DNA from: Nitrospira sp. MA-1
Lineage (GTDB): Bacteria > Nitrospirota > Nitrospiria > Nitrospirales > UBA8639
Assembly: GCA_032139905.1 (NCBI GenBank)
Contig: JAQJDB010000003.1
Coordinates: forward strand, 186,001-250,000
Reading direction: 5' to 3'
Length of the DNA stretch: 64,000 nucleotides
Below, piece by piece: positions 42,849 through 64,000 of this stretch. Position 1 is the stretch's first letter; each line of letters begins with the position of its first letter. The notes under the pieces were generated by a model. The model searched no databases. It was not told the origin of the DNA and saw only the letters and a list, made by a program, of their open reading frames with translations. The translations under genes and the position numbers were made by a program.

Positions 42849-43230
42849 AGATCGTTTAGCGATGCGCAAGCCGAGCTAATCCTTCATGTACTATATAGGC
42901 CTCTTGATCCATGAGGATGAATTAAAAAATAAACGATAAAAAGAAGAAATAATTACACGGAGATCCTTTTTTAAAGATGACGGCCAAGAAAGAGGCTCCT
43001 GACCCACGCTTGACTTTCCTTCTGACAGGCCACCCCGTCCCCTACCAACCGGGAAAAGGTGCGACAAGAAACACACCCTTCTGGGACTTTTAAGATTTTC
43101 CGAACGACGGTTCCGAAAGGTATAATTCCCCTTCATTCTGCGCAGGTGAGGCCCTGGCGGAATTGATCGGTTTGAACCGGTGAGGAAAGCATCTATTGCG
43201 ACCGTCTAATCTCAGAAGAAGGGAATCAAC

Positions 43231-44181: not shown

Positions 44182-44399
44182 CCCTGACGCCCCCTGTGTC
44201 CTGCTGAGCCCCTTCATGTGATCTTCATCCGTTCGCCTTGGCACAGGGTCGTTGCGGTCCGATCGCTCACCCATTTTGCCATTCCTGAAGTCTCTGGCAG
44301 AAATGAATCTGTCTCTCAAATGCGAAGGCCCTCACCCGTGGTGTCACTGGTTGGAACGGATTGGCTATCTATGCCAGAATGAAACGTGGAGGATAGGAA

Positions 44400-44636
44400 A
44401 TGGCAACAATGAATGTGTCGGTTCCCGATCCCATGAAGGACTGGGTGCAGGGCCAAATTGGGACGGGAAAATATGCCAACGCCAGCGATTACGTGCGCAA
44501 TCTGATCCGGCGGGATCAAGAAAAAATCGAGGTGTTACGGAAAACACTTCTCGAAGGAGAGCGTAGCGGTGTGAGCCGCCGGAAGGTTGAAGACATTATG
44601 AACGATGTCAAAAAACGACGTGTAGACAATGAGTGA
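44400..44636 (+). CDS. parD: ParD-family antitoxin
   Basis: A 78-residue ribbon-helix-helix protein (MNVSVPDPMKDWVQGQIGTG, YANASDYVRNLIRRDQEK) typical of type II ParD/CopG antitoxins, which bind their own promoter and neutralise ParE. GGAGG lies 8 nt before ATG. It overlaps parE by 8 nt, a normal arrangement. Confidence 0.9.
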   Translation: MATMNVSVPDPMKDWVQGQIGTGKYANASDYVRNLIRRDQEKIEVLRKTLLEGERSGVSRRKVEDIMNDVKKRRVDNE

Positions 44637-44919
44637 GTATCAACTTTCGAAAAAGGCAGACCAGGACCTCCAGAGAACCTACGAATTTTCCATCCAGCAA
44701 TTCGGGCAAAACGTGGCGGATGAATATTTCCTTTCCCTCAGAGATTGCCTGATGCAGGTGGCCGATAGTCCAACATTGGGACAGGATTGCAGTGAAATTG
44801 TGCCGGAATTGTGCCGGTTCGAATGTGGCCCCCACTCCATTTTTTATAAGACGGGAAAGAAGCGTATTGTGATCATCAGAGTCATACACCAAAGTATGAA
44901 CCCGGACATACACATGTAA
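44629..44919 (+). CDS. parE: ParE-family toxin (RelE/ParE superfamily)
   Basis: A 96-residue toxin with the RelE/ParE fold: SEYQLSKKADQDLQRTYEFS, later LCRFECGPHSIFYK and IVIIRVIHQSMNPDIHM. ParE toxins inhibit gyrase; whether this one does is inferred from the family. Complete with no lesion, so the pair is presumably functional. Confidence 0.88.
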   Translation: MSEYQLSKKADQDLQRTYEFSIQQFGQNVADEYFLSLRDCLMQVADSPTLGQDCSEIVPELCRFECGPHSIFYKTGKKRIVIIRVIHQSMNPDIHM

Positions 44920-45011
44920 AGCAGCGTGATGACGGCGCGACTCTGCCGGGAATCTCCCCTCCTCCCATCCTCCCTACTGAGATCATTTCCAAAGAAATCC
45001 GTAGAAAACAG

Positions 45012-45713
45012 ATGAAGTATTGTCTTCAATTACAAGATCAACAATGGCAATTGATCGATCAGGATGAGCCGGACCTGACGCCGGTGGTCATTGACTTTGT
45101 GTCCGGGAAAACCGCGTATCGAAGAAAATATGGCCACGCCGGTGGCGAGGCCATTAGTAAAGCGGTCGGCATCAAAAAAGGCAAACGACCGACGATAGTG
45201 GATGCCACCGCCGGGTTGGGGCGTGATGCCTTTGTGCTGGCGACGATGGGATGCCGCGTGCATATGATCGAGCGATCGGACATGATCAGCAAACTCTTAG
45301 AAGACGGATTACGTCGTGCCGTAGCAGATGAGAAAATTGGCGCGCTCATCAAAGACAAGCTATCCCTTACTTGTGGGGATAGCCGTCAGGCCCTGCTCCA
45401 TGTCCCGTTTGCACCCGAAGTCATTTATGTCGATCCCATGTTTCCCCTCAAGGACAAATCGGCGCTCGTAAAAAAAGACATGCGAATTGTCCAGGATATC
45501 GTCGGGCATGATACAGATGCCGATGAATTACTGAAGGTAGCCCTCACGATTGCCACCAACCGGGTGGTCGTCAAACGCCCGGCCTATGCCGATTATCTTG
45601 CCGGTATCAAACCCCAGACCTCGATCAAAACAAAAAAACACCGCTTCGACATCTATCTCACTCCCCGTCCGGTAGAACATGGTCATCCTAAGCGAAATGA
45701 AAGATCCGGCTAA
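45012..45713 (+). CDS. rsmJ: 16S rRNA m2G1516 methyltransferase
   Basis: A 233-residue class I SAM-dependent methyltransferase resembling RsmJ (YhiQ), which methylates G1516 of 16S rRNA. Motifs: the KTAYRRKYGHAGGEAISKAVG start, the SAM-binding VDATAGLGRDAFVLAT, the EVIYVDPMFP catalytic segment and KRPAYADYLAG near the end. Monocistronic, housekeeping. Confidence 0.9.
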   Translation: MKYCLQLQDQQWQLIDQDEPDLTPVVIDFVSGKTAYRRKYGHAGGEAISKAVGIKKGKRPTIVDATAGLGRDAFVLATMGCRVHMIERSDMISKLLEDGLRRAVADEKIGALIKDKLSLTCGDSRQALLHVPFAPEVIYVDPMFPLKDKSALVKKDMRIVQDIVGHDTDADELLKVALTIATNRVVVKRPAYADYLAGIKPQTSIKTKKHRFDIYLTPRPVEHGHPKRNERSG

Positions 45714-45903
45714 GCCGTGACAACTACAGCATTCGCTCAGGCCTTTCGATAATTTGCACCAGGCCTTCCTTGTCTACCCAACATCAGTGGAAAGCAGAGC
45801 ATATGAAGCGGTCCCACCGAACCTCCTGGCCCAGGCATCAGGCTTCTTACTCCGTCTTACTCATTTTGGAACCGCGAGACCGTAAGACCGTGAGCCTATC
45901 CTC

Positions 45904-45931
45904 TTGCGTATGTGGTGAGGTATGTTAACAA
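45904..45931 (+). promoter_or_regulatory. Possible pepN promoter
   Basis: TTGCGT (45904-45909), 16 nt spacer, TAACAA (45926-45931), about 55 nt before the pepN GTG. The boxes match sigma-70 consensus only in part. Confidence 0.3.
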
Positions 45932-45987
45932 TGAAGCCTCTGGCCATAGCCGGATATTGAGGATGATAAACGATAGGAGACGATGCC

Positions 45988-48663
45988 GTGTCTGAGGTAA
46001 ATTCCGTGACATATTTGAAAGACTATACGCAGCCTGATTATTGGGTCACACATGTTGATCTGACATTTGATCTTCGCGATGGAGAAACGTTGGTCAGCGC
46101 CAAGTTACAGGTGAAAAAAAATGGCAGTCATGATCACCCGTTGGTCCTTGATGGCGAAGAACTGGAATTGCTGGAGGTGAAACTCAATGGCCTCGCGATC
46201 CCCAAGAGGGCCAATCTGACAGAAGGCTACATCGTTGATCAAAGGTCCCTTTCCCTCCAACCCACAGGTGACGCCTTTACGCTCGAAACGCATGTCAAAA
46301 TTCACCCCGAACAGAACACCGCCCTTGAAGGCCTGTATAAATCAGGGGGCAACTGGTGCACGCAATGTGAGGCCGAAGGGTTCCGGCGGATCACCTTTTT
46401 CCCCGACCGCTCGGATAATATGGCGACATACACCACGAAGATTATTGCCGATCAAATTGCGGCCCCGGTTCTCCTTTCTAACGGGAACCTCGTCGATCAT
46501 GGGCCACTGGATAATCAACGGCATTATGCGGTGTGGGAGGATCCTTTTCCCAAACCCAGTTATTTATTTGCCCTTGTCGGGGGTGACCTCGCATGCATTG
46601 ACGATACCTTCGTGACAGCCAGCGGGCGCCAAGTGATGTTGTGTATTTATGCGGATGAAAAAGACCTCGATAAACTTGATCATGCCATGGCCTCCCTGAA
46701 ACGTGCGATGACATGGGACGAAGAGGTGTATGGTCGTGAATATGATCTTGACCTGTTCAATATTGTGGCGGTTGACGATTTCAATATGGGGGCCATGGAA
46801 AACAAGTCCCTGAATATTTTCAACACGAAGTATGTGTTGGCGCATCCTTCTACGGCGACCGATGCCGATTATCAAGGAGTGGAAGGGGTGATTGCCCACG
46901 AATATTTTCACAATTGGACCGGCAACCGGGTGACATGCCGGGACTGGTTTCAGTTGTGTTTAAAAGAAGGCTTGACGGTCTTCAGGGATCAGGAATTTTC
47001 CGGGGATATGGGTTCGCAAGCGGTCAATCGTATCGATAACGTCCGAAGCCTCCGGATGAGTCAATTCCCCGAAGATGCCGGGCCGATGGCCCATCCACCA
47101 CGACCCAATCAATTTGTCACCATCAATAACTTTTACACCGCCACCGTCTACAGCAAGGGTGCGGAGCTCAATAGGATGTTGCATACCCTATTGGGCAAGG
47201 AAGATTTCCGTAAAGCGTCGGATAAGTATTTTGAACGGTTCGACGGGCAAGCGGTCACGGTTGAAGATTGGGTGCATTGTATGGAAGAGGCCTCCGGTCG
47301 GGACCTCAGCCAGTTCATGCTCTGGTACACCCAGGCAGGCACACCCACAGTGAAAGCCGATTGGTCATGGGATCAGGCGAGGCAAATGTTCACCCTCACG
47401 CTCGAACAAATTGTCCCAACCATACAGAATCAATCAAACGGTCAACCCAGACACATTCCCGTGAAATATGGATTGATAGGACCCGATGGCGAGGATGTCA
47501 GTCAAGGAATGCTGGAGCTCACGCAAGCGAAACAGACATTTACCTTCGAGAATATCCCATCTGACTCTGTCCCTTCGCTTTTCCGCCATTTTTCCGCTCC
47601 GGTCAATCTGGAGGCTCCGTATACAGACGACCAATTGCGACATCTGATGGTGCATGACCGTGATGGATTCAATCAGTGGGAAGCAGGCAATCGATTCCTC
47701 ACCACCAAACTCATGGATCAAATTGATCGTGACGAACGCGGAGAAGACATCCTCGTTGGCGAAGATGTCCTGGATTCATTTCGTAGGATTTTGCAACGAA
47801 CAGATATGGACCAGGAACTCATGAGCCTGGCTCTCAGCCTGCCCGTCTATCAGGAACTGGCTCCTAACCGGACGGTGATTAATCCGCAAGCGATTCTCAA
47901 AGTACGCAAAACATTTCTGGAAACAATCGGCCGTGAGCTTCACGATAAGTTTCTCGAGATTTACCACACCAACTATGATCCCGGGAAGGCATATGATCGT
48001 GCGGATGCCGGCCGCCGCAGCCTGCAAAACACCGCGCTCGCGTATTTGTCGCATTCAGGAGACTCAGACGTGGCCAAGCTGGCCGTGAAGCAATATAACC
48101 AGGCCAACAATATGACCGACCGCTATGCGGCTATGTCAATCATCATCAATATGGATGAGGCGCAATCCTATCGAGACGACGTGACCCAACATTTTTACAA
48201 TCAATTTGCCAATGATGCGTTAGTCGTCGATAAGTGGATGGGGGCATTCGCGAGATCACAGAACGATAATATTCTCCAGATCGTAAAAGACCTGACAGGA
48301 CATGAGGCCTTTACACACCCCACCCCGAACAGAATGCGAGCGTTGTATGGGACTTTTTCGCATGGCAACCCCAAAGGTTTTCATGCCGAAGACGGATCAG
48401 GGTATGCCTTTGTCGCGGACTTTCTCATGGAACTGGATGCCAAAAACCCCCAAGTGGCCTCAAGAATGATTGGGGCATTCGAAAAATTCCGACAACATCG
48501 ATTGGATTTACAAAACAAAATGGAAGCACAACTCCGTCGAATAGCCGAAATGAAGAGTCTTTCAACCGATCTCAGTGAAAAGCTGGAGCGGTATTTGGGT
48601 AAGGAGACATTTAGCCAGCTCAGGGCTGGGAAAGAGGATGCCAAACCACCATCTCCGGCATAA
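45988..48663 (+). CDS. pepN: Aminopeptidase N
   Basis: Zinc M1-family aminopeptidase of 891 residues that removes N-terminal residues from peptides in the cytoplasm. Exopeptidase motif GAMENKS near residue 268, zinc motif HEYFHNW at about 304 with the third ligand Glu at about 327 (KEGLTVFRDQEF). Full length and close to the E. coli enzyme type. It starts with GTG; AGGAG lies 8 nt before it, while the nearby ATG at 45983 is in another frame. Confidence 0.95.
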   Translation: MSEVNSVTYLKDYTQPDYWVTHVDLTFDLRDGETLVSAKLQVKKNGSHDHPLVLDGEELELLEVKLNGLAIPKRANLTEGYIVDQRSLSLQPTGDAFTLETHVKIHPEQNTALEGLYKSGGNWCTQCEAEGFRRITFFPDRSDNMATYTTKIIADQIAAPVLLSNGNLVDHGPLDNQRHYAVWEDPFPKPSYLFALVGGDLACIDDTFVTASGRQVMLCIYADEKDLDKLDHAMASLKRAMTWDEEVYGREYDLDLFNIVAVDDFNMGAMENKSLNIFNTKYVLAHPSTATDADYQGVEGVIAHEYFHNWTGNRVTCRDWFQLCLKEGLTVFRDQEFSGDMGSQAVNRIDNVRSLRMSQFPEDAGPMAHPPRPNQFVTINNFYTATVYSKGAELNRMLHTLLGKEDFRKASDKYFERFDGQAVTVEDWVHCMEEASGRDLSQFMLWYTQAGTPTVKADWSWDQARQMFTLTLEQIVPTIQNQSNGQPRHIPVKYGLIGPDGEDVSQGMLELTQAKQTFTFENIPSDSVPSLFRHFSAPVNLEAPYTDDQLRHLMVHDRDGFNQWEAGNRFLTTKLMDQIDRDERGEDILVGEDVLDSFRRILQRTDMDQELMSLALSLPVYQELAPNRTVINPQAILKVRKTFLETIGRELHDKFLEIYHTNYDPGKAYDRADAGRRSLQNTALAYLSHSGDSDVAKLAVKQYNQANNMTDRYAAMSIIINMDEAQSYRDDVTQHFYNQFANDALVVDKWMGAFARSQNDNILQIVKDLTGHEAFTHPTPNRMRALYGTFSHGNPKGFHAEDGSGYAFVADFLMELDAKNPQVASRMIGAFEKFRQHRLDLQNKMEAQLRRIAEMKSLSTDLSEKLERYLGKETFSQLRAGKEDAKPPSPA

Positions 48664-48825
48664 ACATGAGAGCAGGGTTGAAGACAGACAGGGCGAAAAG
48701 TTGAGCGAGTCCTATCAATCAATTCCTCCCCAATCCTGCCATTTCCTAATCGAAGCCCATGCTCCGCCTCCGTCATTCCCGACATCCATCATCGGGCATC
48801 CCTCTAAACTTCCTCCTCCTCACCT

Positions 48826-49005
48826 TCAGGTCGGCTACCCGGGCTGACGTTTAATTTGTGAGGCGGACCTTGTTTGAGCCCTGCGAGTTGGGCCGCCCTC
48901 CCTGCTCCCACGTCAGCAAGATTTTATGGGGCCGACCTGGGTGAGATTGGTTTTGGCCACTTTTGCCGAAACAAAAGTGGCTCGTCGTTCGGGGCCGAAA
49001 CCCCA
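48826..49005 (+). repeat. Family-1 structured repeat, copy R1 (divergent long stem)
   Basis: The long stem uses different sequence from the other copies: AGGTCGGC (48828-48835) with GCCGACCT (48931-48938), then GCTGACGT (48843-48850) with ACGTCAGC (48910-48917), around the usual GAGC...GCGAGTT apex. Hairpin 2: CCACTTTTG (48957-48965), loop CCGAAA, CAAAAGTGG (48972-48980). Confidence 0.85.
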
Positions 49006-49082
49006 CCATTCATACCTCGCGCCATCCTTCCTCCGCTCATCACTCTTGCATAAAAGTCTCGCAACGGTTCTTCTCCTATCTT

Positions 49083-49275
49083 CCGACGCCTGCCGGCTGG
49101 CCCTAGGGAGGGACGCTGTTCGAATTTAGCGGACCTTGTTTGAGCAGAGCGAGTTGGTCCGCTCTTCTAAAGGTTTGCGTCCCTCCTCTTCAATAAGGCC
49201 AGACGGGGCGTCAATGGTTTTGGCCACTTTTGCCGAAACAAAAGTGGCTCGTCGTTCGGGGACGAAACCCCGGCA
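49083..49275 (+). repeat. Family-1 structured repeat, copy R2
   Basis: Typical copy: GACGCC opens at 49085, GGAGGGACGC...GCGTCCCTCC stem, GCGGACC...GGTCCGC inner stem around TTGTTTGAGC...GCGAGTT, closing GGCGTC near 49207, then the CCGAAA hairpin with CCACTTTTG arms and a CGGGG...CCCCG hairpin. Confidence 0.85.
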
Positions 49276-49354
49276 TACATCAAACATTCAAATCACCCTC
49301 CAAATTTTTGGCATCGAGCAGCAGACAAATTAAGAACAGGTTTCCTCAATCCAG

Positions 49355-49465
49355 CACCTTCAGATCAGCCAACCAGGCTAACGCTTATCACCAGGCGGAC
49401 TTTGTCTGATTATTGCAAGTTGGTCCGCCGTCTGCGTGTTTGCCTCGGTACGCTTTCATGTTGAT
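49355..49465 (+). repeat. Partial family-1 module before R3
   Basis: CAGATCAGCCAACCAGGCTAACGC, GGCGGAC and GTTGGTCCGCC remain, then GTTTGCCTCGGTACGCTTTC. Its right half has been lost or replaced by the start of R3. The same partial module precedes R5 and R8. Confidence 0.6.
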
Positions 49466-49655
49466 CCGACGCCTGCCGGCTGGCCCCAAGGAGGGACGCT
49501 CTTAGCAGCTGGCGGACCTTGTTTGAGCCTTGCGAGTTGGGCCGCTCTTCAGAGTTGGCGTCCCTCCCCTCCAATGAGGCCAGACGGGGCGTCAATGGTT
49601 TTGGCCACTTTTGCCGAAACAAAAGTGGCTCGTCATTCGGGGACGAAACCCCGAC
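49466..49655 (+). repeat. Family-1 structured repeat, copy R3
   Basis: Typical full copy with both short hairpins; apex GTTTGAGCCTTGCGAGTT. Confidence 0.85.
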
Positions 49656-49677
49656 ATCCATTCCCTGAAAAAAATGT

Positions 49678-50820
49678 CTATTGGCGGGTAACCGTTTTCG
49701 GAGAGGAGTCAGGCGTTGCGGTATCAAGATACGGATAATCCGTATATCCCCGGGCATCTCCCCCATAAAAGGTAGCGCGGTCATAGGGATTGAGAGGACC
49801 CCCCAAACGAAAGCGATCGGGAAGATCCGGATTGGCGATAAATAACCGGCCAAACGCCACGGCATCGGCATGGCGGGCGTGAATCACGGATTCAGCAGTT
49901 TCCTGAGTAAAGCCACCGGCGGCAATGACCGGTCCGCCGAATAAACCCTTAAAACGGGAAGAGGCATCGGGAGCATTGGGATCAAGCGCATTCGTATCGC
50001 TGCGCTGATTCGCACGGGGTTCCACGATGTGCAGATAAGCCAGCTTTCTTTTGCCAAGCTCCACCGCGACATGCGAGAACAGCGCCTGGGGATCACTATC
50101 GCGGATGTCGGCCGACACACCCCATGGCGCAATCCTCACCCCGACGCGGTCGTGGCCGAACACCCCCGTCACCTGTTCGACAATCTCAAGCAGAAACCGC
50201 GTGCGATTTTCAATGGACCCGCCATAGGCATCCTCGCGCCGGTTCGTATGATCCTGCAGAAATTGATCAATGAGATAGCCATTAGCGGAATGAATCTCGA
50301 CACCATCAAATCCGGCCGTCAGCCCATGCTCGGCCGCCTTGCGGAAATCACCGATAATCTCTTCAATTTCCCCAAGGGTCAGCGCGCGAGGGGTTTCGAA
50401 GGGAACGACATTGCCCTGCCGGTCCATATGATTGCCCGCCGCAACAACAGCCGAGGGAGCGCCGGGCAGCCGTCCGCCCGGCTGCATCGAACTGTGGGAA
50501 ATACGTCCGGTGTGCCAAATCTGCGAAAAGATAAAGCCCTGCTTGGCATGCACCGCCTCGGTCACCCCGTGCCAGCCCCTCACCTGATCCGCCGTATAAA
50601 TCCCCGGCGCACCGGGATAGCCACGGGCCTGTTCAGAGGTATCCGTCGCCTCGGTGATAATGAGCCCGCCGTCGCTCGCCCGTTGCCCATAATATTCCGC
50701 ATTCAGCCCGTGGGGAACGTCATCCGGTTGCTGACTGCGAAGCCGGGTCAAGGGTGCCATCACCACCCGATGCTTGAGAAGAATCGCCCCAAGGTTAAGG
50801 GGTTGAAAAAGTGCCGACAT
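49678..50820 (-). CDS. Old-yellow-enzyme-type alkene reductase
   Basis: FMN-dependent NADH:flavin oxidoreductase of the OYE/NemA family, 380 residues; reduces activated C=C bonds or nitro compounds. It starts MSALFQPLNLGAILLKHRVVMAPLTR, has the substrate-binding pair in EIHSANGYLIDQFL (His and Asn), the GGSIENR loop and the GFTQETA phosphate segment near the end. Physiological substrate unknown. Solitary, embedded between repeats R3 and R4. Confidence 0.93.
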   Translation of the reverse strand: MSALFQPLNLGAILLKHRVVMAPLTRLRSQQPDDVPHGLNAEYYGQRASDGGLIITEATDTSEQARGYPGAPGIYTADQVRGWHGVTEAVHAKQGFIFSQIWHTGRISHSSMQPGGRLPGAPSAVVAAGNHMDRQGNVVPFETPRALTLGEIEEIIGDFRKAAEHGLTAGFDGVEIHSANGYLIDQFLQDHTNRREDAYGGSIENRTRFLLEIVEQVTGVFGHDRVGVRIAPWGVSADIRDSDPQALFSHVAVELGKRKLAYLHIVEPRANQRSDTNALDPNAPDASSRFKGLFGGPVIAAGGFTQETAESVIHARHADAVAFGRLFIANPDLPDRFRLGGPLNPYDRATFYGGDARGYTDYPYLDTATPDSSPKTVTRQ

Positions 50821-50935
50821 ACCAAACTCCTGTTCAAAGTAATTTCAACCAATCGCCGTTATGGAAATTTACCATATCGACGGGAAAATCCGTAAATGGC
50901 GAACTAGGAAAAAAGCATCGCTTATCAAAAATGGC

Positions 50936-51124
50936 CAGGTCCCGTCCCCGCAGACGAGGTCCTTTTCTTTCGGGAAAAGGACCCAAAACCATTGATGCCT
51001 CGTCTGGCCACATTCAGATGAAGTGAACGCAGCCTTCAGGAGGGCGGACCAACTCGCAAGGCTCAAACAAGGCCCGCCGTTTCATTCGGGCGTTCACTTC
51101 TGGAGGCAGCCGCCAGGCATCCGG
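50936..51124 (-). repeat. Family-1 structured repeat, copy R4 (minus orientation)
   Basis: Divergent copy whose stems have changed on both sides. Long stem GTGAACGC (51023-51030) with GCGTTCAC (51090-51097) instead of GGGACGC/GCGTCCC; outer GATGCC (50994-50999) with GGCATC (51116-51121) instead of GACGCC/GGCGTC; hairpin 2 GGTCCTTTTC (50958-50967) and GAAAAGGACC (50974-50983). Hairpin 3 has degenerated. Confidence 0.85.
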
Positions 51125-51248
51125 ATTGGGTAATAAAAATAAAAGAGAAAAAATTCGGAGTACAGGGTTAAGGTGGGAGTGGGGGGGAATGCAAAGCATG
51201 CCCCCAATCAATGGTAGCCGAAATTGAAAGAAGCCTTACCTAGCCTAT

Positions 51249-51363
51249 CACCTCCAGGTCGGCCAACCAGGCTGACGCCAAAATTCGACAAGCGAACCGT
51301 TGATCCAACGCCTGTGAGTTGGGCGCCCTCCGTGGGTTTGCCTCGGTACGCTTTCATGTTGAT
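51249..51363 (+). repeat. Partial family-1 module before R5
   Basis: CAGGTCGGCCAACCAGGCTG arm then GAGTTGGGCGCCCTCCGTG and GTTTGCCTCGGTACGCTTTC. Same type as 49355-49465. Confidence 0.6.
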
Positions 51364-51553
51364 CCGACGCCTGCCGGCTGGCCCTAGGGAGGGACGCTCT
51401 TCGCATTTGGCGGACCTTGTTTGAGCAGAGCGAGTTGGTCCGCTCTTCTAAAGGTTGGCGTCCCTCCCCTCCAATGAGGCCAGACGGGGCGTCAATGGTT
51501 TTGGCCACTTTTGCCGAAACAAAAGTGGCTCGTCGTTCGGGGGCGAAACCCCG
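51364..51553 (+). repeat. Family-1 structured repeat, copy R5
   Basis: Typical full copy, near identical to R2 in the apex (GTTTGAGCAGAGCGAGTT). Confidence 0.85.
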
Positions 51554-51665
51554 AATCCCTTGACCTCGCCTGCCGGTCCGAAACCCCACCACCCATTCCT
51601 CGGGTCATCCTTCCTCCGCTCATCACTCTTGCATAAAAGTCTCGCAACGGTTCTTCTCCTATGTT

Positions 51666-51855
51666 CCGACGCCTGCCGGCTGGTCCCAGGGAGGGACGCT
51701 CTTCTCAGCTAGCGGACCTTGTTTGAGCCCGGCGAGTTGGGCCGCTCTTCTCCGATTAGCGTCCCTCCGCTCCAATGAGGCCAGACGGGGCGTCAATGGT
51801 TTTGGCCACTTTTGCCGAAACAAAAGTGGCTCGGCTGCCGGGCCGAAACCCGGCA
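51666..51855 (+). repeat. Family-1 structured repeat, copy R6
   Basis: Typical copy with hairpin 3 as GCCGGG, CCGAAA, CCCGGC instead of the CGGGG-CCCCG type. Confidence 0.85.
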
Positions 51856-51931
51856 TTGACCAAACCTTCACATCATGCCCGACATAATTCATGGGGCAAC
51901 AATCCCCTTCTGCCGACAATCAAAAATGGCA

Positions 51932-51960
51932 TTGACTTATATGCATCACTAGTGCATATT
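51932..51960 (+). promoter_or_regulatory. vapBC promoter with operator in the spacer
   Basis: TTGACT (51932-51937), 17-nt spacer, CATATT (51955-51960). The inverted repeat ATATGCA (51939-51945), TCACTAG, TGCATAT (51953-51959) fills the spacer and overlaps the -10 box, so VapBC binding would block polymerase. The start site would be about 51967, at or next to the vapB ATG. Confidence 0.65.
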
Positions 51961-51967
51961 CATACAT

Positions 51968-52168
51968 ATGAGAACGACTTTAAATATTGACAATGACCTG
52001 CTAAAAAAAGCCTCGAAATTAACCGGCATTGAGGAAAAAACCGCATTAGTTCGGTTAGGGCTTGAGGCGCTTATTTCCAAAGAGGCAGCCCACCGCTTGG
52101 CCCAACTTGGAGGATCAGAAAGGCAACTGAAGTTGCCTCCGCGACGGCGATCAATCCCCAAGCCATGA
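51968..52168 (+). CDS. vapB: VapB-family antitoxin
   Basis: A 66-residue antitoxin of the VapB (DUF2191) type: MRTTLNIDNDLLKKASKLTG, KTALVRLGLEALI, then a loosely folded basic tail (KLPPRRRSIPKP) that would neutralise VapC. No ribosome site precedes the ATG and the predicted transcript start lies right beside it, so it may be read from a leaderless mRNA. Overlaps vapC by 4 nt (ATGA). Confidence 0.85.
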   Translation: MRTTLNIDNDLLKKASKLTGIEEKTALVRLGLEALISKEAAHRLAQLGGSERQLKLPPRRRSIPKP

Positions 52169-52527
52169 TTCTCGTCGACACCTCCATCTGGGTGAACCAT
52201 CTCAGAGCAGGAAGTCCCCGTCTGGTATCCTTCCTCCAGGAAAGTTTGGTCCTAACCCATTCCGCTGTCATTGGAGAACTGGCGTGCGGAATGTTAAAAA
52301 ATCGTTTCGAGATCTTAGCGTTACTCCAGGCGCTTCCTAAGGCTCAAATAGCCGACGATCACGAAGTCCTTCACTTACTGGAAACTCAAAAATTATATGG
52401 AGCAGGACTGGGATGGGTCGACTGTCATCTCCTGGCTTCCGCTCAACTAACAGGGTGTGGCATGTGGACTGCTGATGGTGCTCTTCAAAAAGCTGCAATT
52501 AAACTACATCTTCAAGTCTACGAATAA
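52165..52527 (+). CDS. vapC: VapC-family PIN-domain toxin
   Basis: A 120-residue PIN-domain ribonuclease. Acidic active-site residues are visible: LVDTSIWV (first Asp), GELACG (Glu), WVDCHLLASA (Asp) and WTADGAL (Asp). VapC toxins cut tRNA or rRNA; the target is not predictable. Complete. Confidence 0.88.
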   Translation: MILVDTSIWVNHLRAGSPRLVSFLQESLVLTHSAVIGELACGMLKNRFEILALLQALPKAQIADDHEVLHLLETQKLYGAGLGWVDCHLLASAQLTGCGMWTADGALQKAAIKLHLQVYE

Positions 52528-52618
52528 ACCCCATCCTTCCGATCCACTTCTTCCCCTCCATCCTTCCTGTAGTCCTCCTTTTTTTTCATGGAAGTGCCAA
52601 ATATATTCTTTCCTACAT

Positions 52619-52912
52619 TCCGACGCCTGCCGGCTGGTCCCAGGGAGGGACGCTCTTCGCATTTGGCGGACCTTGTTTGAGCCATGGGAATTAATTCCCC
52701 CTTCCTCTCTCAGCTCCCCCGGCCTGGTGGTATGGCCGAGCAGTGCAACCGGCACCGGAAAAAAGGCGGGCAGTGTCCGAGCGCAGCGAGTTTGCCCGCC
52801 GCCGGTGGCGGTGCACTGCGCAGGGCACCCGAAGGGCCATGCCACGGCCAACATGGTTTTGGCTACTTTTGCCGAAACAAAAGTGGCTCGTCGTTCGGGG
52901 GCGAAACCCCGG
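52619..52912 (+). repeat. Family-1 repeat R7, chimeric long copy
   Basis: Begins like a normal copy (GACGCC, GGAGGGACGCTCTT, GCGGACCTTGTTTGAGCC), then switches after about 52684 to a second hairpin type: GGTATGGCC...GGCCATGCC outer, GGCGGGCA...TGCCCGCC inner, apex GTGTCCGAGCGCAGCGAGTT. It ends with the usual hairpin 2 (GCTACTTTTG/CAAAAGTGGC, with G-U pair) and hairpin 3. Confidence 0.8.
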
Positions 52913-53104
52913 TATCCACCTATCCCTCATTCCTGCGATTGCTGACAGGACTCTCGGTCAAAGAAATGACATCTGACAGAGAGTTGCTAAGGAGAAGATG
53001 GTGCTGATGGAAATATGTGCAGAACATCGCCAGGCTCCAGACTCACATGAATGACCCAGTTGAAAGATCAAAACTTGGCCTGCAATTACCCGGAAGGCAA
53101 CTTC

Positions 53105-53113
53105 TGGTATACT
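53105..53113 (+). promoter_or_regulatory. Extended -10 promoter of hicBA
   Basis: TGGTATACT: TATACT (53108-53113) with a TG extension one base upstream, 39 nt before the hicB ATG. No clear -35 box; extended -10 promoters can do without. Confidence 0.45.
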
Positions 53114-53151
53114 TTAGCCACATCAACAGTGCTATCAATGGGGAGGTCAGC

Positions 53152-53355
53152 ATGGAATATCCAATCGTTATCGAACAAGACCCTGAAGCCGGGGGGTATG
53201 TCGTCTATTGTCCCACGTTAAAAGGGTGTGTTTCACAAGGGGAGACTGAGGAAGAAGCCCTGGATAATATCAAGGATGCCATTAAGACCTACCTCGAAAG
53301 TATTGAAGATTTAAAACGACGAAAGAAGCTGCGGACCGTCGAAGTCACGGTATGA
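53152..53355 (+). CDS. hicB: HicB-family antitoxin
   Basis: A 67-residue HicB-like protein: MEYPIVIEQDPEAGGYVVYC, LKGCVSQGETEEEALDNIKDAI. ATG at 53152 follows GGGAGG (53141-53146) at 5 nt; the longer frame to 53017 has no start signal. It lacks a C-terminal DNA-binding domain, the compact form of HicB. Order antitoxin-then-toxin, 4-nt overlap with hicA. Confidence 0.88.
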   Translation: MEYPIVIEQDPEAGGYVVYCPTLKGCVSQGETEEEALDNIKDAIKTYLESIEDLKRRKKLRTVEVTV

Positions 53356-53564
53356 CCAAACTCCCGCAGGTCTCTCATGAACGCGTCGTGAGAGCCCTCA
53401 AGCGTGCAGGATTTTACCTCCTTCGAGAAGGCAAGCACATTTCCATGACCGACGATAAACATATCGTCATCATTCCTCGCCAGCATGTCATCAAACCGGG
53501 CACATTGAAACAGATCCTGGACGCGGCGGAAATATCCTCCGAACAGTTCCGGGAACTTCTCTAG
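53352..53564 (+). CDS. hicA: HicA-family toxin
   Basis: A 70-residue double-stranded-RNA-binding-like mRNA interferase (KRAGFYLLREGKHISM, then IVIIPRQHVIKPGTLKQIL). The catalytic His in the G-x-H segment (EGKHISM) is present. Complete. Confidence 0.88.
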   Translation: MTKLPQVSHERVVRALKRAGFYLLREGKHISMTDDKHIVIIPRQHVIKPGTLKQILDAAEISSEQFRELL

Positions 53565-53645
53565 CTCGCCGTCTCATCGCAATTTTCACCAGCAACCATT
53601 CCTCATCCGTCATCACGCACCATTCTTCACATCTGACCCACCACC

Positions 53646-54052: not shown

Positions 54053-54242
54053 CCGACGCCTGCCGGCTGGCCCCAGGGAGGACGCTCTTATCCGTTGCGG
54101 ACCTTGTTTGAGCCCGGCGAGTTGGGCCGCTCTTCTCCAATTAGCGTCCCTCCCCTCCAATGTGACCAGACGGGGCGTCAATGGTTTTGGCTACTTTTGC
54201 CGAAACAAAAGTGGCTCGACCGCCGGGGCGAAACCCGGCATC
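54053..54242 (+). repeat. Family-1 structured repeat, copy R9
   Basis: Full copy with GCTACTTTTG...CAAAAGTGGC hairpin 2 and GCCGGG...CCCGGC hairpin 3. Confidence 0.85.
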
Positions 54243-54766
54243 TTACCATTGAAATCTCAAGGCCACCTCGCGAGTCCAAACTAGAGCAATCATAAAATCA
54301 TCGAAACTTCGAAAGAAATTCCCTCCATTCTAGTTGCTAGAATGAAATACAATCGCCCTCGAAATTTCTCGGCACACGTATCAATTTCCCTCTGAAGAAT
54401 TTCTGCAAGAAACCTGTCGAGGAATCTTGTCCGATTCATTTTAAAATTTTTCTCTTCTTGTATTTCAAACTACCCCTCAGCTTCCCAAGGCAATTTTTTT
54501 CTGTACTTCATTCCTTTTCTGATGTACGATTCTCAAGCTTTCACAAAGGAACACAATTCCAAACTTTGGATATTACCTGACTCCCCCACCAGGTTTATGC
54601 CATTCCCTCCCAACCAAGTACCCAACCCAATTGAGAAAGTCCGCCCAGTAGTTGCCAAAAATCATAAGGGCACATTCGCGCCACCTGTCCTGAATATTTT
54701 CCATCGGGTAAGGAATCAAAAACATTCGAAAGGGAAAGTACTCGTAAAATTGGTACCGGAACCCCT

Positions 54767-57235
54767 ATGAACCCGCCCGACAAGAAGACGCTGTCTGAAC
54801 GCGACATCTGCACCAAGTTCATCACGCCCGCCGTCGAGCAGGCGGGATGGGACGTCCTGGCCCAAGTCCGTGAAGAAGTCTCCTTCACGGACGGCCGAAT
54901 CATCGTCCGTGGCAAACTCGTCACCCGCGGCAAAGCCAAACGCGCCGACTACATTCTCTACTACAAGCCGAACATCCCCATCGCCCTGATCGAGGCAAAG
55001 GACAACAGTTACGCCGTTGGCGGCGGCATGCAACAAGCACTGGAGTACGCCAAGACCCTCGATATTCCATTCGTCTTCTCATCAAACGGTGACGCCTTCC
55101 TCTTCCATGACCGAACGGGGCAGAACGAGAAAACAGAGTCCGAACTCTCCCTCAACGCCTTCCCATCACCGGAAGCACTGTGGGAGAAATACCGCGCATG
55201 GAAAGGTCTGGCCCCGGCGCAGGAAGAAATCGTGCTTCAAAACTATTACGACGACGCGAGTGGCAAGGAGCCGCGCTACTATCAACGCATCGCCATCAAC
55301 CACACCATCGAAGCCATCGCCAAGGGCCAGGATCGGCTCCTCCTCGTCATGGCCACGGGTACCGGCAAGACCTACACGGCCTTTCAAATCATTTGGCGCT
55401 TGTGGAAGGCCAAGCGCAAGAAACGCATCCTCTACCTGGCGGACCGCAATGTCCTGATCGACCAAACCATGGTCAACGACTTTCGCCCCTTTGGAAAGAC
55501 CATGGCCAAACTCAGCACCGGATCCAAGACGATCGAGCGCGAGGATGGCAACGTGGTTGAGCTGACGACCGCTGTGGACAAAAAGCATCGACGCATCGAC
55601 ACCTCCTATGAAATCTACCTCGGTCTCTATCAGGCCATCACAGGCCCCGAGGAATCCCAAAAACTCTTCCGGGAACTCTCGCCCGACTTCTTTGACCTCA
55701 TCGTCATCGACGAATGTCATCGCGGCAGCGCGGCAGATGATTCCGCCTGGCGGGAGATTCTCGACTACTTCTCCAGCGCCACCCAGATCGGGATGACGGC
55801 CACGCCGAAGGAAACCGAATACGTCTCGAACATCCATTACTTCGGCCCACCCGTCTACACCTACTCATTAAGGGAAGGCATCCGCGATGGCTTCCTGGCT
55901 CCCTATAAGGTAGTCAAAGTCCATTTGGATGTAGACGTGGAAGGCTACCGCCCGATCAAAGGAGAGTCGGACAAGTATGGCAATGAGATCGAAGATCGGA
56001 TCTATAACCAGAAGGATTACGATCGAACCCTCGTCATCGACGAGCGCACCAAGCGCGTCGCCCACAAAGTGAGCCAATTCTTAAAAGAAGGCGGCGACCG
56101 CTTTCAAAAGACCATCATCTTCTGTGTGGACGTCGAGCATGCCGCCCGCATGCGCCAAGCCCTCATCAACGAAAACCAGGATATGATCCAGCAAAACAGC
56201 CGCTATGTCATGCGGATTACCGGCGATGATGCCGAAGGCTGCGCACAGATTGGCAACTTCATTGACCCGGAGGCCAAATACCCCGTCATCGTCACGACTT
56301 CACGACTGCTCTCCACCGGGGTCGATGCTCAGACGTGCCGCCTCATCGTCCTTGACCGGGAAGTCGGCTCCATGACTGAGTTCAAACAAATCGTCGGGCG
56401 CGGAACCCGCGTACATGCGGAAACCAACAAGTTCTATTTCACCCTCATCGATTTCCGCAAGGCCACCAACCATTTCGCCGATCCCGACTTCGACGGCGAA
56501 CCCGTGCAGATCTACGAACCTGGGGAGAACGACCCGGTGGCACCACCCGACGATGTCGCACCGCCAATTGATGAGGAAGAGCCCATTCCGCTACAGCCTA
56601 GCGACGAAGAAACGGTTATCCTGGACCCCGAAAAGCCGGACATCACGATCCCACCTGGCAGGAATCAACCGCGCAAATACTATATTCATGGTGAGAAAGT
56701 CAGTATTGTGGCTGAGCGAATCGAATATCTGGATGAATACGGCAAGCTCGTCACCGAAACCCTGCGCGACTATTCCAAGAAAACGCTACGAAATCACTAT
56801 GCCAGCCTCGATACGTTTCTCAAGCAGTGGAACCACACCGAACGCAAGCAGGCCATTATCGAGGAACTGGAAAACGAAGGGGTTTTCCTCGAACCATTGG
56901 CCGACGAAGTGGGAAAGGATCTCGATCCGTTCGACCTCATCTGCCACGTGGCGTTCGACCAGCCGCCGCTCACCAGACGCGAGCGCGTGGAGAATATCCG
57001 CAAACGCGATATCTTCAGCAAATACGGCGCGCAAGCCCGCGCGGTACTGGAAGCCCTGCTGCAAAAGTATCAGGACGAAGGCGTCACAAGCCTCGACGAT
57101 CCACGTATCTTAAAAATAGCACCGTTCGATACTATGGGCACTCCCATTGAATTACTCAAAACCTTTGGCGGACGGCCCGGCTTTGAAAAGGCCGTCCATG
57201 AACTGCAACATGCACTCTATGAGGGAGCAGCCTAA
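54767..57235 (+). CDS. hsdR: Type I restriction enzyme, HsdR (EcoEI-like)
   Basis: Endonuclease/translocase subunit of 822 residues. N-terminal PD-(D/E)xK nuclease domain (RADYILYY...ALIEAKD), ATP site ATGTGKTYTAFQ near residue 196, DECHRG near 315, TATP motif III, helicase motif region with SRLLSTGVDAQTCRLIVLDRE and QIVGRGTR. C-terminal EcoEI-type domain with DPFDLICHVAFDQPPLTRRERV. Forms the restriction complex with HsdM and HsdS downstream. Confidence 0.95.
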   Translation: MNPPDKKTLSERDICTKFITPAVEQAGWDVLAQVREEVSFTDGRIIVRGKLVTRGKAKRADYILYYKPNIPIALIEAKDNSYAVGGGMQQALEYAKTLDIPFVFSSNGDAFLFHDRTGQNEKTESELSLNAFPSPEALWEKYRAWKGLAPAQEEIVLQNYYDDASGKEPRYYQRIAINHTIEAIAKGQDRLLLVMATGTGKTYTAFQIIWRLWKAKRKKRILYLADRNVLIDQTMVNDFRPFGKTMAKLSTGSKTIEREDGNVVELTTAVDKKHRRIDTSYEIYLGLYQAITGPEESQKLFRELSPDFFDLIVIDECHRGSAADDSAWREILDYFSSATQIGMTATPKETEYVSNIHYFGPPVYTYSLREGIRDGFLAPYKVVKVHLDVDVEGYRPIKGESDKYGNEIEDRIYNQKDYDRTLVIDERTKRVAHKVSQFLKEGGDRFQKTIIFCVDVEHAARMRQALINENQDMIQQNSRYVMRITGDDAEGCAQIGNFIDPEAKYPVIVTTSRLLSTGVDAQTCRLIVLDREVGSMTEFKQIVGRGTRVHAETNKFYFTLIDFRKATNHFADPDFDGEPVQIYEPGENDPVAPPDDVAPPIDEEEPIPLQPSDEETVILDPEKPDITIPPGRNQPRKYYIHGEKVSIVAERIEYLDEYGKLVTETLRDYSKKTLRNHYASLDTFLKQWNHTERKQAIIEELENEGVFLEPLADEVGKDLDPFDLICHVAFDQPPLTRRERVENIRKRDIFSKYGAQARAVLEALLQKYQDEGVTSLDDPRILKIAPFDTMGTPIELLKTFGGRPGFEKAVHELQHALYEGAA

Positions 57236-57238
57236 CTT

Positions 57239-58693
57239 ATGTCCGTCCGGAATACCGTCAAATCCATTCAAGACATCATGCGCCAGGACAGCGGAGTCGA
57301 TGGCGATGCCCAACGCATCTCACAACTCTGCTGGATGTTCTTCCTCAAAATCATCGACGACCAGGATCAGGAACTGGAAATGATGCAGGAGGGCTACCGG
57401 TCGCCCATCCCGAAGAATTTCCAATGGCGCACCTGGGCCGCAAACCCCGAAGGCATCACCGGCGATGAACTCATGGCCTTCCTCAACGATGAACTCTTCC
57501 CCTCGCTCAAGGAACTCTCCGGCACGGCCAAGGACGGACGCCGCCGTGTCGTGCGGGATGTCTTCGAAGATGCCTACAACTACATGAAGTCCGGCCAGCT
57601 CATGCGCCAGGTCATCAACAAGATCGACGGCATCGATTTCAACAACCTCTCCGAACGCCAGCACTTCGGCGACATCTACGAGCAGATCTTGAATGACCTT
57701 CAAAGCGCGGGCAACGCGGGTGAATATTACACGCCTCGCGCCGTCACGGCCTTTATGGCCGATCGCATCGACCCGCACCCCGGCGAAATTCTCCTGGACC
57801 CCGCCTGCGGCACCGGCGGCTTTCTCACCTGCGCCCTCCGGCACATGCGCGACCGCTACGTCAAAACACCAAAGGAAGAGCAGAAAATGCAGCAGGCCCT
57901 GCGCGCCTGCGAGAAAAAACAGCTTCCGCACATGCTCTGCGTCACCAACATGCTCCTGCACGGCATCGACGACCCTTCCTTCGTCCGCCACGACAACACC
58001 CTGGCCCGGCCATATATCAGTTACGGCCAGTCCGACCGCGTAGACATCGTCCTCACCAATCCGCCCTTCGGCGGCAAAGAAGAAGACGGCATTGAAAGCA
58101 ACTTCCCCAAACATTTTCAAACCCGCGAAACAGCGGACCTCTTCCTGGCCCTCATCGTGCGCCTGCTCAGATCCGGCGGCCGCGCCGCCGTCGTCCTGCC
58201 CGACGGCTCGCTCTTCGGCGAAGGCGTCAAAACGCGCCTCAAAGAACATCTCATGGAGGAATGCAACCTCCACACAATTGTCCGTCTCCCCAACAGCGTC
58301 TTTAAACCCTACGCCGGTATTGGCACGAATCTTTTGTTCTTCGAGAAGGGCGAGCCAACCAAGGATATCTGGTTCTACGAACACCGTATTCCCGATGGAC
58401 AAAAAGCCTACTCGATGACCAGACCCATCCGTTTCGAGCATCTGAAACCCTGCATCGACTGGTGGGGCGGTGCGAAACGCAAAGGACGGAAGGAAACCGA
58501 AGTCGCCTGGAAGGTGACGGCCGATGAAGTCAAAGCCCGTGGCTACAACCTGGACTTCAAAAATCCCCACACCGTTGCCGACGACCACGGCGATCCCGAG
58601 GAACTGCTGCAAAAACTCGACGCAGCCGAAAAGGATACCGCTAATTTGCGTGATCAGCTCAAGGCCATTCTTGAGAAGGCCATGCTGCGATGA
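57239..58693 (+). CDS. hsdM: Type I DNA methyltransferase, HsdM
   Basis: Adenine methyltransferase subunit, 484 residues, starting 4 nt after the hsdR stop codon. SAM motif I LDPACGTGGFL near residue 187, motif IV NPPF near 274, N-terminal helical HsdM domain and the GEYYTPRAV segment. Overlaps hsdS by 4 nt (ATGA). Confidence 0.95.
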   Translation: MSVRNTVKSIQDIMRQDSGVDGDAQRISQLCWMFFLKIIDDQDQELEMMQEGYRSPIPKNFQWRTWAANPEGITGDELMAFLNDELFPSLKELSGTAKDGRRRVVRDVFEDAYNYMKSGQLMRQVINKIDGIDFNNLSERQHFGDIYEQILNDLQSAGNAGEYYTPRAVTAFMADRIDPHPGEILLDPACGTGGFLTCALRHMRDRYVKTPKEEQKMQQALRACEKKQLPHMLCVTNMLLHGIDDPSFVRHDNTLARPYISYGQSDRVDIVLTNPPFGGKEEDGIESNFPKHFQTRETADLFLALIVRLLRSGGRAAVVLPDGSLFGEGVKTRLKEHLMEECNLHTIVRLPNSVFKPYAGIGTNLLFFEKGEPTKDIWFYEHRIPDGQKAYSMTRPIRFEHLKPCIDWWGGAKRKGRKETEVAWKVTADEVKARGYNLDFKNPHTVADDHGDPEELLQKLDAAEKDTANLRDQLKAILEKAMLR

Positions 58694-60408
58694 ACCCGGC
58701 CCAACTTCTCAGTCACTTTGACCGGATCGGTGAGGCACCAGACGCCATCCCACGCCTACGCAGCTTTATCTTCGACCTTGCCGTGCGCGGAAAGCTGGTC
58801 GAGCAGGATCCCAGAGACGAACCCGCATCCGAACTGCTGAAACGAATTCAGGCGGAGAAGGACCGGTTATTGAAGGAAGGGAAGATCAGAAAACCAGAGC
58901 CACCACTTCAGATTGATGACGAGGAACTACCATTTAAGGTACCAACAGATTGGTGCTGGGCGCGCCTGACAACAATTAGCCGAAAAATTCATTACGGCTA
59001 CACTGCTTCAGCAAATAAATTGCTCAAAGATGTGCGTCTCCTGCGAATCACGGACATCCAAAACAACTCGGTTGATTGGGCATCAGTGCCGGGATGCGAG
59101 ATTTCCGACCATGACATAGGCCAATACAAGCTCGAACAAGGCGACATCCTAATCGCACGAACAGGCGGGACAATTGGGAAAACCTTCCTCGTTAGACATG
59201 CCCCGGTAACAGCAGTCTTTGCGTCCTATCTAATCCGTGTCCAAGGGACGACAGAACTCTATGATCAATACTTAAAGCTATTTCTCGAATCCCCCGCCTA
59301 TTGGAAGCAGCTTCAGGACGGAGCGCGAGGCGCTGGCCAACCAAACGTCAACGGCCAGACCCTTGGACGTATGGTCGTGACGATCCCACCCCTCGCAGAA
59401 CAACACCGGATCGTTGCCAAGGTGGATGAACTGATGGCCCTGTGTGATCGATTGGAGACGGCGCAGACGGAGCGGGAGAGCCGCCGGGATCGGCTAGTGG
59501 CGTCGTCTCTGCATCATTTGAATAATGGCGCGGATGCCGACGCATTCCTGGAACACGCCCGCTTCTACTTCAACCACCTCCCGCGCCTAACCACCCGCCC
59601 CGACCATATCAAACAACTCCGCCAAACCATCCTCAACCTCGCCGTCCGCGGCAAATTAGTGGAGCAAGACCCCACCGACGAGCCCGCCTCCGAACTGCTC
59701 AAGCAGATTCAGGCGGAGAAGGCGCGGTTGCTGGCGGATGGCCATATGCGCCGTCAAACAGATGTCATTCAAGTCGAGGAGACTGAATTTCCTTTCGAGA
59801 TTCCGGCAACCTGGTGTTGGGTGCATTTGATCGACGTGGTAAATAAACTTACAGACGGTACGCACCATTCGCCCCCGAACTTAGCGAATGGACCCTTCAA
59901 ATACATTACCGCCAAAAACATAAAGCCTGAAGGTGTAGCACTCGAAAACCTCACCTACGTAACAACCAAAGTTCACAATGAGATCTATGCCCGGTGTAAC
60001 CCCGAAAAGGGTGACATCCTTTACATCAAGGACGGAGCTACGACTGGCATCGTCACAATCAATGATCTTGATGAACCATTCAGTATGCTATCCAGCGTTG
60101 CTTTGCTGAAACTATCAGCACTAATTTATAACCGGCTAGTAGTTGTATTTTTACAGTCCCCATTTTTCTATAATCAAATGCGGGGCTTGATGAAGGGCGC
60201 TGCAATCACCCGAGTCACCCTAAAACGAATGGGGCCAGCGCTTATTCCCCTTCCACCCCTCGCCGAACAACACCGCATCGTCGCCAAAGTGGATGAACTG
60301 CTGGCCCTCTGCGACCAACTGGAAACCCAACTCACCACCACCCAATCCGAAACCCAAGAACTCATGGAAGCCATCCTCCATGACACCATTTGCAGCAGTA
60401 GGCCTTGA
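58690..60408 (+). CDS. hsdS: Type I specificity subunit, HsdS
   Basis: A 572-residue DNA-recognition subunit built as two target-recognition domains, each followed by the conserved helix PPLAEQHRIVAKVDELxALCDxLE (near residues 235 and 530). The first repeat segment GKLVEQDPRDEPASELLKRI and second GKLVEQDPTDEPASELLKQI are nearly identical, showing the internal duplication. The recognition sequence cannot be read from this. Confidence 0.95.
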   Translation: MNPAQLLSHFDRIGEAPDAIPRLRSFIFDLAVRGKLVEQDPRDEPASELLKRIQAEKDRLLKEGKIRKPEPPLQIDDEELPFKVPTDWCWARLTTISRKIHYGYTASANKLLKDVRLLRITDIQNNSVDWASVPGCEISDHDIGQYKLEQGDILIARTGGTIGKTFLVRHAPVTAVFASYLIRVQGTTELYDQYLKLFLESPAYWKQLQDGARGAGQPNVNGQTLGRMVVTIPPLAEQHRIVAKVDELMALCDRLETAQTERESRRDRLVASSLHHLNNGADADAFLEHARFYFNHLPRLTTRPDHIKQLRQTILNLAVRGKLVEQDPTDEPASELLKQIQAEKARLLADGHMRRQTDVIQVEETEFPFEIPATWCWVHLIDVVNKLTDGTHHSPPNLANGPFKYITAKNIKPEGVALENLTYVTTKVHNEIYARCNPEKGDILYIKDGATTGIVTINDLDEPFSMLSSVALLKLSALIYNRLVVVFLQSPFFYNQMRGLMKGAAITRVTLKRMGPALIPLPPLAEQHRIVAKVDELLALCDQLETQLTTTQSETQELMEAILHDTICSSRP

Positions 60409-63389: not shown

Positions 63390-64000
63390 CCACCCCTTGA
63401 AGTCACGGGGAAAATCTTTGGGTGACTCATCCTCCGCCTCTCGCACTGGCCGGCATGGCCACCATGTACTTCGGGACGTTGATTCCTTTTCTCCAACAAC
63501 ACGGGTGGCGGCAAATCGATATTCGAGGCGAGGAGGTGGCTCGCTGTACTCCGCCTCGGAACAAGAAAGTTATTAGTGGCATTCCGGGACGAGAGTGCAA
63601 TGCGGTTATTTGAAGCGGCCCACTGCGATGTCTCTAAGGATTAATTCTCTTGATCATTAATTTGGGAACAATTATGCGCCGGGTTTCGGCCCGGCAGCCG
63701 AGGTCCTTTTGTTTCGGCAAAAGGACCCAAAACCATTGACGCCCCGTCTGGCCTCATTGAAGAGGAGGGACGCCAACTCCGAAGAGCGGCCCAACTCGCT
63801 CCGCTCAAACAAGGTCCGCGAGATGCTCAGAGCGTCCCTCCTGTAGGCCAGCCGGCAGGCGTCGAAACACCGAAGTCATTGGTGGCATTCTGGAACGGGA
63901 ATGCAATGCGTTGTTTGAGGATGCACAGCGGAATGACTTGAAGGCTAAAGTCACTCGACCATTCATTCGGAAGATTCAAGCACGTTTTTTTAATAGGTGA
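63390..64000. other. Repeat M2 between possible broken-gene fragments
   Basis: The 610-nt tail of the window. Two stretches of similar sequence lie either side of repeat M2: about 63577-63650 and 63866-63940. The right one, in frame to a TGA at 63998-64000, reads EVIGGILERECNALFEDAQRN... and the left one KVISGIPGRECNAVI then stop. This looks like a damaged gene duplicated around the repeat. No family recognised. Confidence 0.35.
63675..63865 (-). repeat. Family-1 structured repeat, copy M2 (minus orientation)
   Basis: Nearly identical in layout to M1: GCCGGG/CCCGGC hairpin 3 at its left edge, GGTCCTTTTG/CAAAAGGACC hairpin 2, and the long stem to GGCGTC near 63863. Apex GAGCGGAGCGAGTT. Confidence 0.85.

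What the first reader, a model, noticed from the sequence alone, without database searches (positions are those of the whole stretch)
48826..48938. R1 keeps the fold with an entirely different long stem
In R1 the outer stem is AGGTCGGC/GCCGACCT and GCTGACGT/ACGTCAGC, unrelated to the GACGCC/GGAGGGACGC stem of the others, yet the apex GAGC...GCGAGTT and the two following hairpins are the same. So the apex and the tail look like the fixed parts, and the long stem a replaceable spacer.
Basis: seen in the sequence. Interest (0 to 1): 0.75.

Follow-up and report, generated by a model that had tools for sequence, protein, structure and literature searches.

The report
Mobile three-hairpin repeat with interchangeable stems
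R1 belongs to a family of about 185-base intergenic DNA repeats, found in many related Nitrospirales bacteria, in which the hairpin tip and a two-hairpin tail stay the same while the long stem exists in several unrelated but always self-complementary versions; in the best-studied genomes the copies line both sides of islands of anti-virus genes.

Summary
R1 is one exact unit (48820-49004): long stem, fixed tip TTGTTTGAGC-NNN-GCGAGTTGG, two-hairpin tail. Its stem arms match class-B neighbours only at chance level (49-60%; shuffles average 50-53%), while tip (84-95%) and tail (89-90%) match strongly. R1 is no accident: 12 full class-A copies occur in at least five genomes of two genera, beside dominant class B and a third class C, all sharing tip and tail. 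Stems in A and B are held by compensatory change: interchangeable in sequence, but not a free spacer. About a third of class-B copies outside islands show flanks of a ~400-bp MITE with terminal inverted repeats and 8-bp target duplications, with empty sites in five relatives; class A was not found in it. In six islands of three genomes copies point inward from both flanks towards a defence core, and chimeric units occur, also at R1's orthologous site. Integron-integrase and Y1/RAYT readings are not supported. Best reading: a non-autonomous, structure-conserved mobile repeat, a new variant of the REP/MITE kind. Transposase and cellular role are unknown.

The parts
48820..49004 (+). R1: complete class-A unit (long hairpin plus two-hairpin tail)
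   Evidence: 93% copy at C3:22219-22403 matches exactly this stretch; class-A alignment
48820..48835 (+). R1 outer stem, left arm TCACC..CAGGTCGGC
   Evidence: fold; pairs kept in 12 copies, 93.5% of cells
48931..48944 (+). R1 outer stem, right arm GCCGACCTG-GGTGA
48843..48850 (+). R1 inner stem, left arm GCTGACGT
48910..48917 (+). R1 inner stem, right arm ACGTCAGC
48862..48897 (+). apex: GGCGGACC-TTGTTTGAGC-CCT-GCGAGTT-GGGCCGCC, the fixed tip
   Evidence: 67 genome copies within 3 mismatches, control 0; 84-95% identity to class B
48956..48981 (+). tail hairpin 1, GCCACTTTTGCCGAAACAAAAGTGGC
   Evidence: covarying pairs
48991..49004 (+). tail hairpin 2, GGGG-CCGAAA-CCCC, right end of the unit
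49085..49275 (+). R2: class-B unit (GACGCC..GGAGGGACGC stem)
49355..49656 (+). chimera: class-A part without its last right arm and tail, then a complete class-B unit (starts about 49468)
50940..51119 (-). divergent unit on the minus strand (approximate ends)
51249..51556 (+). second class-A part followed by a class-B unit (approximate ends)
51671..51858 (+). class-B unit (approximate ends)
52625..52920 (+). chimera: class-B left part with apex, then a complete class-C unit (approximate ends)
54056..54245 (+). class-B unit, last one before the restriction genes (approximate ends)
63665..63865 (-). class-B unit on the far side of the defence core, opposite orientation (approximate ends)
52165..52527 (+). 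PIN-domain (VapC-like) toxin gene between units
   Evidence: Pfam PIN E 1e-11
53017..53564 (+). HicB-like antitoxin and HicA toxin genes between units
   Evidence: Pfam HicB_lk_antitox, HicA_toxin
54767..60408 (+). type I restriction-modification genes hsdR, hsdM, hsdS: the core that the arrays flank
   Evidence: Pfam EcoEI_R_C, N6_Mtase, Methylase_S
45988..48663 (+). pepN aminopeptidase gene just upstream of R1; lies in the other island in G011 and G019
   Evidence: Pfam Peptidase_M1

Best explanation
R1 is a class-A member of a dispersed, non-coding, non-autonomous mobile repeat of about 185-194 nt (the core). The core folds from one strand into a long interrupted hairpin with a fixed tip, followed by a two-hairpin tail. 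Pairing is kept in the stem and sequence is kept in the tip and tail loops, so stems have diverged into unrelated-looking classes. Shown: the classes, the covariation, and that part of the class-B cores travel as cargo of a ~400-bp MITE with terminal inverted repeats and 8-bp target duplications (empty sites exist). Shown as patterns: arrays with inward polarity around defence cores, and chimeric units. Inferred: tip and tail are what a protein or the copying machinery recognises; in the islands the copies serve as homology that reshuffles toxin-antitoxin and restriction genes; chimeras arise when one unit lands in another and the two identical tails then delete the stretch between them.
For: 67 apex copies in the genome, control 0; stem classes A, B, C with shared apex and tail in several genomes; two-sided changes 21 cells (class A, slid controls 3-5) and 114 cells (class B, slid controls 8-15); sharp unit ends; 402-bp insertion with empty sites in G002, G011, G013, G017, G019; TIR units with 8-bp target duplication, 14 of 27 at 7/8 or better against 0.7% by chance; MITE flanks on at least one side in 54 of 168 non-island class-B cores; inward polarity in six islands of three genomes; chimera against intact A at the same pepN site.
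Against: No class-A core (0 of 12) and almost no island core (3 of 62 class B) shows the MITE flanks, so the route by which R1 itself spread is not shown. No target duplication at bare core ends. No transposase with matching ends was found. The orientation pattern of the islands is not explained by plain transposition.
Confidence: 0.72

Rival explanations
1. Transcribed RNA element: the unit acts in mRNA 3' ends (stability, termination) or as a small RNA, and its structure is conserved for that reason.
For: Strong covariation; G.T exceeds A.C on the written strand, 74 to 36; intergenic; outside islands the gene on the tail side is more often convergent, 32 to 12.
Against: No Rfam match at E up to 1. 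Orientation in islands follows the island half, not the genes. Folded single-stranded DNA would also tolerate G.T better than A.C.
Confidence: 0.13
2. Integron-like recombination sites: each toxin-antitoxin or defence cassette carries a folded single-strand site used by a tyrosine recombinase.
For: Cassette-like arrays rich in TA genes with a large imperfect hairpin beside each; pepN with its A-type unit sits in different islands in different genomes.
Against: No integron integrase above the family cut-off, only Xer-like matches. The conserved part is the tip, not the stem base as in attC (established knowledge of attC). Arrays converge from two sides. Many copies are far from cassettes.
Confidence: 0.08
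3. REP sequences mobilised by a Y1/RAYT transposase (IS200/IS605 type): single-strand transposition of the folded core.
For: No target duplication at bare cores; strand-biased pairing; palindromic and intergenic like REPs (PMC3733652).
Against: G019 has no Y1 match and G000 only a broken fragment, although each has over 60 apex copies; G014 has three Y1 matches and one apex copy. The unit is about five times longer than REPs and has no GTAG tag seen at its foot.
Confidence: 0.05

Closest known systems
MITEs (non-autonomous elements with terminal inverted repeats)
   Same: About 400-bp non-coding unit with ~20-bp TIRs, 8-bp target duplication, empty sites, many copies
   Different: Only part of the class-B cores ride in it; the core occurs without TIRs in islands, and class A was never seen in it
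REP / BIME / REPIN repeats and CGTC-tagged REPs (PMC3733652, PMC2817692, PMC3116915)
   Same: Intergenic palindromic repeats, dozens of copies, stem changes with pairing kept, subfamilies; CGTC REPs also lack a dedicated transposase
   Different: REPs are 20-40 bp single hairpins; this unit is 185-194 nt with three hairpins, a fixed tip and several unrelated stem classes, and no link to RAYT genes
Integron attC arrays (and attC clusters without integrase)
   Same: Large imperfect hairpins in arrays rich in toxin-antitoxin genes
   Different: No integrase; tip conserved rather than stem base; arrays converge on a core from both sides
Units in an Oxalobacteraceae MAG (L113, L283) and Variovorax (L271)
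   Same: Same tip TGTTTGAGC-GCA-GCGAGTT on a long stem followed by a two-hairpin tail
   Different: Different stem and tail sequences; only two apex matches per genome or record; no name for them was found in the searched literature

Membership tests
MITE (carrier of part of the class-B cores) | terminal inverted repeats | tested here: met
   GGATCATACAGAATATATGG / CCATAAATTCTGTATGATCC-like ends
MITE (carrier of part of the class-B cores) | target-site duplication | tested here: met
   8 bp; 9 of 27 perfect, 14 of 27 at least 7/8, 0.7% expected
MITE (carrier of part of the class-B cores) | empty site in relatives | tested here: met
   402 bp at C1:142k absent in G002, G011, G013, G017, G019
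MITE (carrier of part of the class-B cores) | autonomous element with the same ends | tested here: inconclusive
   TIR search of G000 and G019 gave pairs 170-547 bp apart, no transposase-sized pair recognised; other genomes not searched
R1 / class A as member of that MITE | TIR flanks around the core | tested here: not met
   0 of 12 class-A cores
REP (GTAG type) mobilised by RAYT | associated Y1/RAYT transposase gene | tested here: not met
   absent in G019, only a broken fragment in G000
REP (GTAG or CGTC type) | 20-40 bp single hairpin with a tetranucleotide tag at one end | tested here: not met
   unit 185-194 nt with three hairpins; definition from PMC3733652
Integron attC site | integron integrase in the genome | tested here: not met
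   no match over the cut-off of TIGR02249; the same weak matches occur in all 14 control genomes
Rfam RNA families | covariance-model match | tested here: not met
   no match at E up to 1 in window 42000-60000
Structured RNA element | transcription from the folded strand | not testable with these tools
   needs RNA-seq

The most novel reading that the evidence does not exclude
The three-hairpin unit is the working site of an undescribed cassette system: a host factor reads the fixed tip and tail on single-stranded DNA and assembles toxin-antitoxin and restriction cassettes into two terminus-near defence islands from both flanks, with stem classes deciding which units recombine. The same tip and plan in Betaproteobacteria would make it a widespread system.
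Probability: 0.12. Interest if true: 0.85.

Novelty: new variant of a known kind. Interest (0 to 1): 0.5.

Why it matters
It separates what is fixed (tip and tail) from what is interchangeable (stem) in a large repeat family, which gives a concrete recognition-site hypothesis. It also shows one repeat family framing defence islands with a consistent inward polarity, which bears on how such islands gain and lose genes.

Tried and rejected
Integron reading: no integrase. RAYT reading: no link with Y1 genes. Rfam: nothing. Target duplication at bare core ends: only weak excesses of 2-3 letters at shifted offsets among hundreds of combinations, taken as noise. Replication-strand bias of non-island copies in G019: positions set against the skew, no clear bias. 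Simple gene-orientation rule: none consistent. Defence enrichment outside islands: some neighbours (Gabija GajA/GajB, TIR, DNA methylases), but most are housekeeping. Apex in IMG/VR: none; phage and plasmid collections hold only tail-like stretches in Acinetobacter, Variovorax and Iodobacter records. Exact-sequence literature search: no paper.

Full report
What was asked. The finding says that R1 (48826-48938) has the same fold as its neighbours but an unrelated long stem, with apex and tail unchanged.

Observation. The arms are present and fold significantly (DNA z = -3.97). Against two class-B neighbours R1's stem arms are at chance identity (49-60%; shuffles 50-53% on average, maxima 63-67%), while apex (84-95%) and tail (89-90%) are far above chance. 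The repeating unit is larger than reported, 48820-49004: its 93% copy at C3:22219-22403 matches that stretch.

Family. In its own genome (4.76 Mb, 7 contigs; window = C3:186001-250000) the apex occurs 67 times within three mismatches, control 0. All but one of 20 relatives of the same genus and two genomes of other genera in the family hold the stricter apex pattern. Stem classes in 325 de-duplicated copies with a tail: B 240, C 35, A 12, other 38. Class A includes copies in G019, G020, G002, G028 (different genus) and three MAGs, which may overlap with the handles. Because copies were found by the apex, the tail was used for a less biased check: 74/83, 49/50 and 142/148 tails carry the apex upstream, shuffled 0; the last set comes from loci fetched by the apex.

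Structure is maintained. On 12 class-A sequences 92% of cells pair, with 21 cells changed on both sides (slid controls 3-5). On 40 class-B sequences it is 94% and 114 cells in 23 pairs (slid controls 8-15 cells). G.T exceeds A.C, 74 to 36, which points to the strand as written being the folded one, as RNA or as DNA. In 122 of 325 copies the three tip bases are GNA; d(GCGNAGC) is a very stable DNA mini-hairpin (own knowledge), so the tip could work on single-stranded DNA; this is only a lead.

Mobility. At C1:142 kb the core lies in a 402-bp segment absent from G002, G011, G013, G017 and G019. The unit recurs in the genus with TIR GGATCATACAGAATATATGG and 8-bp target duplications: 14 of 27 at 7/8 or better, 0.7% expected. 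MITE flanks are seen on at least one side of 54 of 168 class-B cores outside islands (25 on both sides), 3 of 62 class-B cores in islands (none on both) and 0 of 12 class-A cores. The bare core has sharp ends, a pyrimidine-rich 5' flank, an A-rich 3' flank and no target duplication. So the route by which R1 itself spread is not shown.

Islands. R1 opens an array flanking type I restriction genes (54767-60408), with PIN and HicBA genes between copies. A second island on the same contig is alike: core HsdM, HsdS, GmrSD-like, HsdR; flanks with ParE, Zeta, MazE/PIN, DUF433/DUF5615 and HicB. In G019 and G011 two islands each have defence-type cores (SIR2-like protein, cytosine methylase, type I RM, MrcB-like). 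In all six, copies left of the core are on + and right of it on -, with few exceptions, although most genes there run on +. Copies in one arm are not independent of each other, so no p-value is given. Sampled GC skew puts the islands near the + to - switch, hence near the replication terminus, in G019 and within about 0.2-0.4 Mb of it in G011; the sampling is coarse.

Chimeras. Several units join the left part of class A or B to a complete class-B or class-C unit with one tail. At pepN, G000 has the full R1 whereas G011 and G019 have the A left arm followed by a class-B unit; pepN itself lies in island 2 in G000 but island 1 in the others. Landing of one unit in another, then deletion between the two identical tails, would explain this; that step is inferred.

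Rivals. Integron and RAYT readings fail tested features. A transcribed RNA role remains open.

Beyond the phylum. Units with the same tip and plan but other stem and tail sequences exist in an Oxalobacteraceae MAG and in Variovorax, there close to a HigB-type toxin-antitoxin gene. The tail hairpin alone, after a different long hairpin, occurs in Acinetobacter. No described family was found in the open-access library, which lacks most subscription papers, so absence of a name is not proof of novelty.

Noticed in passing
G019 C1:3430000-3651000; G011 C1:1403000-1632000; G000 C3:18000-52000 and 234800-252200: Two defence islands per genome at matching chromosomal places, with repeats pointing inward on both flanks and lying near the replication terminus by sampled GC skew.
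   Followed up: partly
window 45988-48849: pepN with its downstream A-type unit lies in island 2 in G000 but in island 1 in G011 and G019: a core gene that changed island.
   Followed up: partly
L374, L375, L377 (G000 C4:225655, C4:272952, C7:636752): Elements with the same TIRs but a different interior made of CCTGAGC..CGAAGG-type repeats instead of the three-hairpin core; C7:636752 has a perfect 8-bp duplication ATCTTACT.
   Followed up: partly
L378 and L379 (G000 C7:190271, G019 C1:147002): Short CTGAG..CGAAGG-type repeats sit inside the tip of the hairpin, and in L379 a further stretch sits in the tail loop: loops look like insertion targets for smaller repeats.
   Followed up: no
L270 around 1501 (Acinetobacter baumannii record CP035931.1): The tail hairpin follows a quite different long hairpin in an intergenic stretch, so the tail module may be older than these stems.
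   Followed up: partly
L271 800-1580 (Variovorax paradoxus): Two such units back to back, tails outward, next to a gene annotated as HigB-family toxin.
   Followed up: no
G000 C6:175-179k, C7:806-808k, C6:319-326k, C7:927-930k and others: Outside islands, neighbouring copies often face outward around 1-6 kb of genes, among them Gabija (GajA/GajB) and TIR-like genes.
   Followed up: partly
window 48940-49240 and other tails: The tail reads as short open frames (..VLATFAETKVARRSG.., ..FGHFCRNKSGSS..) that could be mis-annotated as small proteins.
   Followed up: no
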